From NCBI GenBank assembly GCA_000431535.1, contig HF991803.1:59026-95162 (forward strand): DNA of 36,137 nucleotides, written 5' to 3'. A program made the translations under genes and the position numbers. This DNA is from Clostridium sp. CAG:678 (GTDB taxonomy: Bacteria; Bacillota; Clostridia; Oscillospirales; Acutalibacteraceae). Below the pieces are notes generated by a model that had not been told where the DNA came from, ran no database searches, and worked only from the letters and a program-made list of their open reading frames with translations. Below, piece after piece: positions 13,778 to 30,931 of the stretch; positions within the stretch are counted from its first letter, which is position 1; each line of letters opens with the position of its first letter.

Positions 13778-14299
13778 ATGGAACTGATCAGACTGTATAA
13801 AAGCGATTTTGGCGCGCTTTACAAAATTATGGAAGAGAGTTTTCCGAAAGATGAAATCCGCGCTTACAGCGACCAGGCTGCTTTATTTGATAGGAGCGAA
13901 TTTTTTGCTTACGGAGTCAAAGACGAAAGCGGGAAACTTAAGGCTTTTATCACATTTTGGCATCTGAACGGCTTTACGTTCGGCGAGCATTTTGCAGTGG
14001 ACCCAAACGAACGCGGCGCAGGTCTCGGCGCAAAGATCCTTGCAGAAGTTTTAAAAACAGACGGCAGAAGATTCTGCCTGGAAGTGGAACTGCCGGAAAC
14101 TGAAACGGCAAAACGCAGGATTGGCTTTTATGAGCGGATGGGCTTTACGCTGAATGATTTTGAATACTGCCAGCCGCCGCTGGGTAAAGACCGAAAAGCA
14201 GTTGCGCTAAAGATCATGTCCACCGGCGGAAAACTGACCCAAGCCGAATTTGAAAAAGTTAAGGCAGAAATCTATAAAAATGTATACGGCGTTTTATAA
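13778..14299 (+). CDS. GNAT family N-acetyltransferase
   Basis: This 173-residue protein has a GNAT fold. The acetyl-CoA loop is at NERGAGLGAKIL, matching the R-x-x-G-x-G/A pattern, followed by LEVELPETETAKRRIGFYERMGF, the usual beta-bulge and helix of the family. The substrate cannot be told from sequence. The ATG is three bases after the GH27 stop and has only a weak ribosome site, suggesting translational coupling. It is the last gene of the unit that begins with the Nudix fusion; a strong terminator follows 13 bases later. Confidence 0.88.
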   Translation: MELIRLYKSDFGALYKIMEESFPKDEIRAYSDQAALFDRSEFFAYGVKDESGKLKAFITFWHLNGFTFGEHFAVDPNERGAGLGAKILAEVLKTDGRRFCLEVELPETETAKRRIGFYERMGFTLNDFEYCQPPLGKDRKAVALKIMSTGGKLTQAEFEKVKAEIYKNVYGVL

Positions 14300-14312: not shown

Positions 14313-14360
14313 AAGCCGCGGCGGAGAAAAATCCCGCCGCGGCTTTTCGGTTTTTCTTTT
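14313..14360 (+). terminator. Intrinsic terminator after the GNAT gene
   Basis: AAGCCGCGGCGG at 14313-14324 pairs with CCGCCGCGGCTT at 14334-14345, followed by a T-rich tail to 14360. Confidence 0.92.
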
Positions 14361-14372
14361 TTATTCTTATAT

Positions 14373-14399
14373 AAAAAACAGGCACGGTAAACCGTGCCT
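14373..14399 (-). terminator. Left copy of the locus terminator hairpin (works leftward, for ilvC)
   Basis: Read on the minus strand, AGGCACGG pairs with CCGTGCCT (14380-14399) and is followed by six T residues (14373-14378). This is the only ilvC-side hairpin with a T-run, yet it is 330 bases from the ilvC stop. The repeat element and a second copy of the same hairpin lie in between. Confidence 0.75.
14379..14399. repeat. Flanking direct repeat, left copy (element A)
   Basis: This 21-base palindromic sequence recurs at 14686-14706. The first 16 bases are identical, and the right copy then lacks one T. It forms the terminator hairpin with core GGCACGGTAAACCGTGCC. Confidence 0.85.
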
Positions 14400-14685
14400 C
14401 AGCGTGTAGAAAAAGGTATAAATATAGAAAAAAAGCAGTCCTACACGCTGATTAGGCTGCGAGAAATCGAGCAGGATCTTGCATTTGGCGGTTTGTAGGC
14501 GTACATAGGTACGTTAAAACCGACAAAGGCAAGAAACGCGAATGCCGCACAACTGTGCGGCATTCTTTCTTTTTATCGATTATATAAGCATATTTGACTA
14601 TAAAAATTCTTTTATTCAGCGAGGAATATTGTAATATAAATAAAATTATCACCGCGCGTTCCTGCCGACTTTATCGACAGCCTGA
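14400..14685 (+). mobile_element. Non-coding MITE-like element, copy A
   Basis: This 286-base element lies between the convergent GNAT and ilvC genes. Its ends are imperfect inverted repeats: TCAGCGTGTAGAAAAAG reading in from the left (14399-14415), and TCAGGCTGTCGATAAAG reading in from the right on the minus strand (14669-14685). They agree at 13 of 17 positions. A copy of the local terminator hairpin sits on each side. A related element occurs at 30608-30902, sharing the left 15 bases, the internal fold, an ATTCTTTTAT..AGCGAG block (14607-14622) and the right 20 or so bases. No open reading frame of note lies inside, so movement would need an enzyme encoded elsewhere. The mobile nature is inferred from structure. 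Confidence 0.65.
14401..14575 (+). ncRNA. Candidate structured RNA, copy A
   Basis: The + strand folds as follows. Stem 1 is AGCGTGTAG (14401-14409) with CTACACGCT (14441-14449). A pseudoknot joins GCAGTC (14435-14440, in the loop of stem 1) to GGCTGC (14455-14460). A GAAA tetraloop hairpin CGA/TCG lies at 14460-14469. A long interrupted stem runs from CTTGC (14478) to GCAAG (14533), capped by CGTAC-ATAG-GTACG (14500-14513). A terminator-like hairpin AATGCCGCAC/GTGCGGCATT (14541-14564) is followed by a T-rich tail. Copy B keeps every helix with different bases in several. The G-U pair in the pseudoknot would be an A-C mismatch on the other strand. No clear promoter is visible upstream, so transcription is unproven. 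Confidence 0.55.
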
Positions 14686-14706
14686 CAGGCACGGTAAACC
14701 GGCCTG
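14686..14706. repeat. Flanking direct repeat, right copy (element A)
   Basis: This is the second copy of the terminator hairpin at 14379-14399, with one base missing in the 3' arm. It is followed on the + strand by CATGTTTTT, so it can end rightward transcripts. It has no T-run on the minus strand. Confidence 0.8.
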
Positions 14707-14728: not shown

Positions 14729-15766
<1,038 letters not shown>

Positions 15767-30581: not shown

Positions 30582-30610
30582 AAACCGTTTGAACTGAGTT
30601 CAAACGGTTT
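30582..30610 (-). terminator. Left copy of the locus terminator hairpin (works leftward, for amt)
   Basis: AAACCGTTTGAAC pairs with GTTCAAACGGTTT around TGA or a small loop. On the minus strand it is followed by TTTTACTTTATT. It lies about 400 bases beyond the amt stop, on the far side of element B. Confidence 0.7.
30585..30607. repeat. Flanking direct repeat, left copy (element B)
   Basis: A 23-base palindromic sequence that recurs exactly at 30903-30925. It is the terminator stem of this locus and differs completely from the one flanking element A. Confidence 0.9.
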
Positions 30611-30902
30611 AGCGTGTAGAAAAAGTTGCTCCTTTAGAAAAAATGCAGTTCTACACGCTGAGGAGACTGCGAGAAATCGAGCCGAATTTCGTTTTCTTGC
30701 GAGCGGGCGCCGTACAACGGTACTGCCCCCGAGCAAAAAACGAAAAGCGCAATGCCGCATAAACGTTGGTTTATGCGGCATTTAACTGTTTATACGCGTA
30801 TTCTTTTATGAGCGAGCTGCTTTTCGGCGGTGTGTTACAATTTTTGATTTTTGCTTAAAGTATAAGTCGGCGCGGTTCAGCCGACTTTATCGACAGTCTG
30901 AG
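30608..30902 (+). mobile_element. Non-coding MITE-like element, copy B
   Basis: This 295-base relative of the element at 14400-14685 lies between the convergent phosphoglucomutase unit and amt. The left end TTAGCGTGTAGAAAAAG (30609-30625) and the right end CTTTATCGACAGTCTGA (30885-30901) are imperfect inverted repeats. Shared with copy A are the first 15 bases, the CTACACGCTGA..CTGCGAGAAATCGAGC core, the AATGCCGCA hairpin base, an ATTCTTTTAT..AGCGAG block at 30800-30815 and the last 20 or so bases. Middle parts differ in sequence. It is flanked by two exact 23-base copies of the local terminator stem. No coding capacity is visible, and mobility is inferred. Confidence 0.65.
30611..30785 (+). 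ncRNA. Candidate structured RNA, copy B
   Basis: The fold matches copy A. Stem 1 is AGCGTGTAG (30611-30619) with CTACACGCT (30651-30659). The pseudoknot pairs GCAGTT (30645-30650) with GACTGC (30665-30670). A GAAA hairpin lies at 30670-30679. The long stem TTTCGTTTT-TTGC (30687-30700) pairs with GCAA-AAAACGAAA (30733-30745), then GGGC with GCCC, capped by GTAC-AACG-GTAC (30712-30723). The last hairpin is 14 bp, AATGCCGCATAAAC with GTTTATGCGGCATT (30751-30782). The long stem has quite different bases from copy A but the same layout. The tail after the last hairpin is less T-rich than in A. No promoter is evident. Confidence 0.55.
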
Positions 30903-30931
30903 CCGTTTGAACTGAGTTCAAACGGCTTTTT
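30902..30931 (+). terminator. Right copy of the locus terminator hairpin, with T-run
   Basis: GCCGTTTGAAC and GTTCAAACGGC (30902-30926) form the stem, followed by TTTTTGT. It terminates rightward transcripts from the phosphoglucomutase side and contains the right flanking repeat (30903-30925). Confidence 0.88.

What the first reader, a model, noticed from the sequence alone, without database searches (positions are those of the whole stretch)
14379..14706. Element A: non-coding element inserted in a bidirectional terminator, with the whole hairpin duplicated
The sequence shows two near-identical 21-base palindromes (14379-14399 and 14686-14706) on either side of a 286-base element with imperfect inverted ends (TCAGnnTGTnGAnAAAG). 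The left palindrome carries the A-run (T-run for ilvC) and the right palindrome carries the T-rich tail, as if one bidirectional terminator was split and its stem copied. Small elements usually duplicate a few bases; copying a full hairpin would keep termination working for both convergent genes. Mobility is an inference.
Basis: partly seen in the sequence, partly recalled or inferred. Interest (0 to 1): 0.8.

Follow-up and report, generated by a model that had tools for sequence, protein, structure and literature searches.

The report
Transposon that duplicates whole terminator hairpins
A small non-coding jumping element, apparently moved by IS1182-type transposases, lands on the hairpin that stops transcription of a gene and leaves a full copy of that hairpin on each side of itself, so the stop signals survive the insertion.

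Summary
The element at 14399-14685 (287 bp, ends TCAGnnTGTnGAnAAAG) has 7 other complete copies in its genome, and its end motif occurs 296 times in 60 genus genomes (reversed-pattern control: 5). Most complete copies are flanked by a direct duplication of their own locus-specific hairpin: 8 of 8 here and 59 of 71 in relatives. IS1182-family insertion sequences with the same end type do the same: 8 of 14 chromosomal copies with two credible ends, and 13 of 17 plasmid copies from Firmicutes, Fusobacteria and Proteobacteria. Over 88 duplications (17-36 bp) the repeat equals the palindrome's span exactly in 64 (shuffled mean 7.3). Filled/empty pairs show one hairpin before and two after; two plasmid pairs are near-identical outside the insertion. 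Best reading: a non-autonomous IS1182-type element (MITE) whose DDE transposase joins at the two 5' feet of an extruded palindrome, so target structure, not a fixed stagger, sets the duplication. Published IS1272 work (same family) reports hairpin deletion and only hypothesises this outcome. Limits: no strict empty site at ilvC, no IS1182 transposase found in this genome, and MITE and IS share only their ends.

The parts
14379..14398 (.). left copy of the duplicated terminator palindrome (target-site duplication), preceded by an A-run at 14373-14378 that is the T-run for ilvC transcripts
14399..14685 (+). non-autonomous element (IS1182-type MITE), 287 bp
14399..14415 (+). left terminal inverted repeat TCAGCGTGTAGAAAAAG
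14400..14450 (+). left-end hairpin: CAGCGTGTAG (14400-14409) pairs with CTACACGCTG (14441-14450)
14540..14565 (+). internal hairpin, 12-base perfect arms, followed by TTTCTTTTT on the + strand; terminator-like
14669..14685 (-). right terminal inverted repeat (TCAGGCTGTCGATAAAG read on the - strand)
14686..14706 (.). right copy of the duplicated palindrome (one base lost), followed by a T-rich tail
13778..14299 (+). GNAT acetyltransferase gene, converging on the element; a GC-rich hairpin (14315-14324 with 14334-14343) and T-run follow it
14729..15754 (-). ilvC (ketol-acid reductoisomerase), converging on the element from the right
30585..30607 (.). second copy in the window: left palindrome CCGTTTGAACTGAGTTCAAACGG
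30609..30901 (+). second copy in the window: element of 293 bp of the same family
30903..30925 (.). second copy in the window: right palindrome, identical to the left one

Best explanation
The element is a miniature, non-autonomous DNA transposon whose ends match those of IS1182-family insertion sequences. It inserts at palindromes, mostly terminator-like hairpins between A- and T-runs, and the whole palindrome is duplicated flush against both ends. Shown: shared ends, locus-specific duplicated palindromes, duplication length equal to palindrome length, and single-palindrome empty sites. Inferred: the IS1182 DDE transposase acts in trans on the MITE, and it recognises the palindrome as an extruded cruciform or hairpin. 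It would join the two 3' ends of the element at the 5' foot of the hairpin on each strand. Both joining points lie at the four-way junction whatever the stem length, so gap repair copies the whole palindrome. The outcome keeps a hairpin plus T-run for each converging gene at the far side of the element, which would make terminators a harmless landing place.
For: Own genome: 8 of 8 copies with both ends have a matching locus-specific hairpin on both sides. Relatives: 60 of 71 exceed the 99th percentile of mismatched flank pairs. Of 117 elements measured, 88 have duplications of 17-36 bp (flank examined: 36 bases), 64 of 88 equal the palindrome span exactly and 82 of 88 within 2 bp; length-shuffled mean 7.3, maximum 18 in 2000 shuffles; Spearman 0.94. 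An autonomous element with these ends (G028:C7, 1601 bp) is flanked by duplicated AGGATGCGGTTTTCACCGCATCCT; its transposase frame scores 410.8 bits against NF033551 IS1182 (cut-off 270) and hits PF13751. In plasmids, 13 of 17 IS1182 copies with TCAG-type ends show whole-palindrome duplication. Filled/empty pairs: L248/L253, 18 bp duplicated, flanks 200 of 200 and 230 of 230 identical; L252/L254, 25 bp, 200 of 200 and 229 of 230; MITE pair L062/L212, flanks 80% and 94% identical. In a tree of 34 transposases the 29 from elements with TCAG-type ends are split by a 100/99-supported branch from 5 with other or undetermined ends.
Against: No IS1182 transposase was found in this genome. A relative of the L077 transposase (E <= 1e-20) occurs in only 6 of 80 genus genomes, PF13751 in 4 of 60, while the end motif occurs in 37 of 60, so most MITE-bearing genomes show no partner. 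Interiors of 76 MITEs and 15 IS copies share nothing at E <= 0.001: the link rests on ends and target behaviour. 12 of 71 relatives' copies lack a scorable duplication; 6 of 14 chromosomal IS copies have a different palindrome at each end, and 4 of 17 plasmid copies have two different palindromes or none on one side. Cruciform extrusion and strand chemistry were not observed. Most genus genomes are drafts in many contigs. Other recombinase families were not searched for.
Confidence: 0.84

Rival explanations
1. The two hairpins are a fixed part of the element and travel with it.
For: Hairpins lie at both ends of most copies.
Against: Each locus has its own hairpin sequence; flank pairs between loci do not match, pairs within a locus do. 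Empty sites already hold the hairpin.
Confidence: 0.02
2. A terminator was first duplicated in tandem by slippage and an unrelated element then fell between the two copies.
For: Palindromes are prone to replication slippage (recalled).
Against: It would have to happen independently at 88 sites, flush to both element ends in 75 of them; the three insertions with an empty counterpart show one hairpin there, not two.
Confidence: 0.02
3. A different recombinase (tyrosine integrase, integron-like hairpin recombination, or a group II-like retroelement) moves the MITE, and the similarity of ends to IS1182 is coincidental.
For: No IS1182 transposase in this genome; no shared interior; integron attC sites and class C introns also use hairpins (recalled). 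The element folds strongly as RNA on either strand (z -11.0 and -10.1).
Against: The only transposase genes I found between such ends are IS1182 ones, and those elements duplicate palindromes in the same way. No Rfam family reaches its threshold in the window. Other recombinases were not searched for.
Confidence: 0.09
4. Target choice is by transcription or supercoiling at gene ends, not by DNA structure; duplication ends at palindrome feet because the transposase cuts at the A/T-rich edges of terminators.
For: Many targets are terminator-like, with A- and T-runs right outside the stem (by eye).
Against: Duplication length follows the stem, exactly in 64 of 88, and palindromes without a clear A-run and T-run are used too (for example L091 and L109).
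Confidence: 0.1

Closest known systems
IS1182 family insertion sequences (NF033551; PF13751)
   Same: Autonomous elements with the same end type encode an IS1182 transposase well over the curated cut-off and sit at palindromes.
   Different: The window element has no transposase gene. Another branch of IS1182 (ISCfr1, ISGdi16 and a Sinorhizobium copy) has other ends and no palindrome duplication in the three copies measured.
IS1272 / TnSha1 of staphylococci (IS1182 family; PMC5678879, PMC4923244)
   Same: Targets are stem-loops, several of them terminators, with no sequence consensus.
   Different: Those papers report deletion or replacement of the stem-loop and no target duplication; here the whole stem-loop is duplicated. 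PMC5678879 draws the duplicating outcome only as hypothetical pathway b.
MITEPye1 of Paracoccus yeei (PMC11578231)
   Same: MITE with TIRs resembling IS1182-family ends, no ORF, intergenic, folds as RNA.
   Different: Flanked by 4-bp direct repeats rather than whole palindromes.
REP-targeting insertion sequences such as ISPsy8 and ISRm22 (PMC1525189)
   Same: Insertion into palindromic DNA.
   Different: They break the palindrome inside and make repeats of 2-6 bases or none.
IS1634 / IS1549 (recalled, not looked up)
   Same: As I recall, these DDE elements also make long target duplications of variable length.
   Different: As far as I recall, the length there is not tied to a palindrome.

Membership tests
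IS1182 family (autonomous relatives) | Transposase above the curated score of NF033551 | tested here: met
   410.8, 401.3 and 395.0 bits against cut-off 270 for the three transposases tested
IS1182 family (autonomous relatives) | Terminal inverted repeats around the transposase gene | tested here: met
   14 chromosomal copies and 17 plasmid copies
IS1182-derived MITE (window element) | TIRs matching an autonomous partner | tested here: met
   Motif TCAGnnTGTnGAnAAAG shared; 296 matches against 5 for the reversed pattern in 60 genomes; IS ends
IS1182-derived MITE (window element) | No transposase gene, short, multi-copy | tested here: met
   287 bp; 8 copies with both ends and 6 one-ended ones in this genome; no IS1182 transposase found in the genome
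IS1182-derived MITE (window element) | Same target and duplication type as the partner | tested here: met
IS1182-derived MITE (window element) | Interior sequence derived from the partner | tested here: not met
   No match at E <= 0.001 between interiors of 76 MITEs and 15 IS copies; not required of every MITE, but it leaves descent unproven
IS1182-derived MITE (window element) | Mobilised in trans by the transposase | not testable with these tools
   needs a transposition assay
IS1272 stem-loop replacement mode | Target stem-loop deleted, no target duplication | tested here: not met
   Stem-loop duplicated in filled/empty pairs
Known structured RNA family (Rfam) | Match at gathering threshold | tested here: not met
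   0 matches in the window; best sub-threshold match Leu_leader 33.2 bits, threshold 50

The most novel reading that the evidence does not exclude
A clade of IS1182 DDE transposases, seen here in Firmicutes, Fusobacteria and Proteobacteria, has no fixed stagger. It recognises the four-way junction of an extruded palindrome and duplicates exactly what is extruded. The target's own fold acts as the ruler of the duplication, and terminators become self-preserving landing sites for the IS and its MITEs.
Probability: 0.6. Interest if true: 0.82.

Novelty: new variant of a known kind. Interest (0 to 1): 0.66.

Why it matters
Target-site duplications of DDE transposons are usually short and of fixed length (recalled; long variable ones are known as exceptions). 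Here the length varies over 17-36 bp and follows the target palindrome, which is strong natural evidence for structure-guided strand transfer. It explains how these elements can fill terminators without breaking gene punctuation, gives a simple signature (an IS or MITE bracketed by twin hairpins) for annotation, and makes the hypothetical 'pathway b' of the IS1272 model directly testable with plain palindromic targets.

Tried and rejected
RNA-family reading: no Rfam match at gathering. The sub-threshold Leu_leader and Phe_leader matches were set aside as chance on a hairpin-rich stretch, although the element folds far better than shuffles; a plain inverted-repeat element would do so too. I did not test covariation.

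Strict empty site at ilvC: the GNAT neighbour is not within the fetched flanks (up to 1500 bases) of any of 29 ilvC loci from relatives (tblastn at 1e-3 without hits; these are the 29 best of 61 relatives' matches). By eye, several relatives have one hairpin with an A-run and T-run right after ilvC (L186, L195, L198, L201), but the neighbour differs, so this counts only as weak support.

Search for the partner in this genome: PF13751 and the L077 transposase gave nothing in G000. A third MITE locus (L069, G019) tested against its sister genome G022 gave only one flank, so no empty site could be read there.

The 12 relatives' copies without a scorable duplication (L052, L057, L086, L088, L133, L137, L152, L159, L171, L172, L173, L179): some have a wrongly paired end (L052, L133), some a diverged pair (L088, L152, L179), one an inverted loop (L159), one two different hairpins (L173), the rest no matching hairpin on one or both sides; this sorting is by eye. 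Rows dropped before the counts: 20 of 92 relatives' loci, 11 of 30 autonomous loci and 1 of 9 own loci had no pair of ends; 1 autonomous locus had no left flank; 1 relatives' locus repeated another. Four autonomous loci (L105, L111, L076, L079) had one false end; they are outside the '8 of 14' but inside the 18 and the 117. The 92 relatives' loci were not a random draw: 29 came, 60 I picked from the matches listed (the list was cut short; some contig-edge matches were left out), 3 came.

Plasmid survey: 22 loci chosen by me for spread, 11 of 60 rows listed and 11 of 60; 17 had TCAG-type ends, 3 other ends, 2 no ends found. Not a random sample.

One search printed its results and then ended with an error while writing a scratch file; the counts used here come.

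Literature: eight searches. None of the papers opened reports whole-palindrome duplication by IS1182 elements; of the listed papers I opened seven and read passages (of PMC5678879 also the abstract and the first part of the Discussion); PMC4438569 and PMC10969869 held nothing on it. The other listed papers were seen only as listings. Only open papers are held, and ISfinder could not be consulted; I recall that ISfinder lists long, variable direct repeats for some IS1182 members, so single cases may be on record there.

Full report
What is there. Between a GNAT gene (13778-14299, +) and ilvC (14729-15754, -) lies a 287-bp element at 14399-14685 with imperfect terminal inverted repeats TCAGCGTGTAGAAAAAG and TCAGGCTGTCGATAAAG. 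It is bracketed by two direct copies of one palindrome, CAGGCACGGTAAACCGTGCC at 14379-14398 and CAGGCACGGTAAACCGGCCTG at 14686-14706; the right copy has lost a base. The A-run lies outside the left copy and the T-rich tail outside the right copy.

It is a repeat family. One search found further copies in the same 2.39-Mb genome. Eight copies, this one included, have both ends, and at each of them the same hairpin stands on both sides while hairpins differ from locus to locus. A second copy lies in the window at 30609-30901, between identical palindromes at 30585-30607 and 30903-30925. Six one-ended copies (L035, L036, L037, L038, L039, L041) also abut a palindrome, read by eye. Several contigs break inside copies: the palindrome at the end of C23 recurs at the element end in C25, and the one at the start of C23 at the element end in C26.

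Relatives. A DNA search with another copy (L004) matched 33 of 60 genus genomes, own included, some of them only through a nested stretch. The end motif matched 37 of 60, 296 times in all, against 5 matches for the reversed pattern. I fetched 92 loci from relatives; 72 had both ends, 71 of them distinct. The match of left to right flank was compared with flanks paired across loci: 8 of 8 own copies and 60 of 71 relatives' copies exceed the 99th percentile of the mismatched pairs; by a fixed score of 12 it is 8 of 8 and 59 of 71. Hairpins pass the score used on both sides in 7 of 8 own and 60 of 71 relatives' copies; the own exception is the window element, whose right hairpin has lost a base.

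The autonomous partner. PF13751 (a DDE domain found in IS1182 transposases) hit 4 of 60 genus genomes, one of them (G024:C22) next to an end motif already found. G028:C7 holds an element of 1601 bp with ends TCAGACTGTCGAAAAAG and TCAGACTGTAGAAAAAC and duplicated AGGATGCGGTTTTCACCGCATCCT. Its transposase frame is 533 aa and runs some 88 bases past the right end, so about 504 aa lie inside. It is IS1182 by NF033551 (410.8 bits, cut-off 270). A scan of genome contigs gave 25 loci of relatives. Of the 14 chromosomal copies with two credible ends, 8 have the palindrome duplicated, and 6 have a different palindrome at each end, abutting the ends in both cases. The latter fits recombination between copies or assembly switching, but a circular, complete plasmid record (L230 with L241) shows it as well, so assembly cannot be the only cause. 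MITE and IS interiors share nothing detectable (0 matches between 76 and 15 sequences at E <= 0.001), so the link rests on ends and target behaviour.

Beyond the genus. In plasmid records I examined 22 IS1182 loci. Of 17 with TCAG-type ends, 13 have whole-palindrome duplications of 18-33 bp, in Enterococcus, Sutcliffiella, Cytobacillus, Staphylococcus, Cetobacterium, Rhizobium, Aminobacter, Salinivibrio, Klebsiella and Providencia; 3 (L230, L232, L242) have two different palindromes, and L251 none on the left. Three copies with other ends (L236, L239, L240) have no palindrome duplication; L236 has a 5-base repeat. In a tree of 34 transposases the 29 from elements with TCAG-type ends are separated from the 5 others by a 100/99-supported branch; copies with two different palindromes are scattered among duplicating ones, as expected if they are secondary. 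The tree program warns that the 5 others have long branches, so their exact place is unsure; L245 and L251 are not in the tree.

The ruler. Over all sets, 117 elements were measured and 88 have a duplication. Its length runs from 17 to 36 bp (36 being the flank length examined). It equals the span of the palindrome, measured on the left flank alone, in 64 of 88, and is within 2 bp in 82 of 88; it is flush with both element ends in 75 of 88. Shuffling the lengths among sites gives 7.3 matches on average and 18 at most in 2000 trials; the rank correlation is 0.94. A DDE transposase on ordinary double-stranded DNA would be expected to have a fixed stagger (recalled, with exceptions such as IS1634). 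If the palindrome is extruded as a cruciform, the two joining points lie at one junction whatever the stem length. This is an inference, but it accounts for variable and matching lengths.

Empty sites. The MITE at G022:C3 is absent at the orthologous place in G019:C7 (flanks 80% and 94% identical), which has one hairpin with A-run and T-run, AAAAAAACGGCCTTAAAAGGTCGTTTTTT; its stem is similar but not identical to the filled site's. A K. pneumoniae plasmid copy (L248) against a V. alginolyticus plasmid (L253): 18 bp duplicated, 200 of 200 and 230 of 230 flanking bases identical. An E. faecium DO plasmid copy (L252) against L254 and L255: 25 bp duplicated, 200 and 199 of 200, and 229 of 230, identical. 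At one site, G054 and G047 carry the element in opposite orientation between the same kind of palindrome. In 4 relatives' copies the loop of one hairpin looks inverted relative to the other, in one of them by a single base. Both fit recombination or template switching between palindrome arms after insertion (inference).

What it does to the genes (reasoned from the sequence, not tested). With a duplicated hairpin, transcription from the left meets hairpin, element, hairpin plus T-run, and likewise from the right. Each converging gene keeps a complete terminator, on the far side of the element. Insertion at one foot without duplication would separate hairpin and T-run for one direction. The GNAT gene also has its own hairpin and T-run at 14315-14347, so here the stakes are mainly with ilvC.

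Comparison with what is known. IS1272 and TnSha1, of the same family, insert into stem-loops, several of them terminators, but delete them and make no duplication (PMC5678879: abstract, passages and the first part of the Discussion; PMC4923244: passages). [quoted passage not shown] the present family looks like that case. PMC12056078 (passages) says that IS1182 transposases act with or without duplication or deletion and may recognise a sequence or a structure. An IS1182-type MITE is known in Paracoccus yeei, with 4-bp repeats (PMC11578231, passages). REP-targeting insertion sequences break palindromes internally with 0-6-bp repeats (PMC1525189, passages). Hence: a new MITE family of a known IS family, with a duplication mode not described in the papers I opened.

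Weak points. This genome has no transposase of the family that I could find, so mobilisation in trans is inferred. Most genus genomes are drafts. The samples were chosen, not drawn at random. Cruciform recognition rests on lengths, not on biochemistry.

Noticed in passing
L031 (G000:C25) 1-1651 and G000:C23 10791-10842: A copy whose two contig-separated ends share the palindrome ACGCAGCCTTTAGGCTGCGT seems to carry three genes on the C25 side (a SAP-domain protein over the Pfam cut-off; a protein with a sub-threshold MGMT DNA-binding match; a small protein with a weak LIC10604-family match): possible cargo-bearing non-autonomous version. The middle is not assembled.
   Followed up: partly
L003 and L004 interiors (G000:C37:116349-116734, G000:C40:254691-255078): About 100 extra bases with a CCCCAAAAAGTTTTACAACTTTTTGGGG hairpin; in other genus genomes the stretch around it matches on its own, so it may be a separate repeat nested in the element.
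   Followed up: no
L046, L058, L139, L159: The hairpin loop on one side looks inverted relative to the other side while stems agree (in L058 by a single base), suggesting loop flipping by template switching or recombination at palindromes.
   Followed up: partly
L058 (G054:C1) and L218 (G047:C3): Orthologous site with the element in opposite orientation between closely similar palindromes.
   Followed up: partly
L077 ends, L080, L081, L089: Autonomous copies carry a terminator-like hairpin just inside the TIRs (by eye), perhaps shielding the transposase from outside transcription.
   Followed up: no
L077 2250-2999, just outside the right palindrome of the G028 element: A tyrosine-recombinase-like reading frame lies next to the IS on the other strand (recognised by eye from the translation, not searched).
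   Followed up: no
L077 707-2308: The transposase frame has no stop inside the element and reads through the right end and palindrome.
   Followed up: no
L230 with L241 (plasmid pTVN), L242: IS1182 copies whose two ends abut two different palindromes in plasmids recorded as complete; origin (adjacent deletion, inversion or recombination between copies) unresolved.
   Followed up: partly
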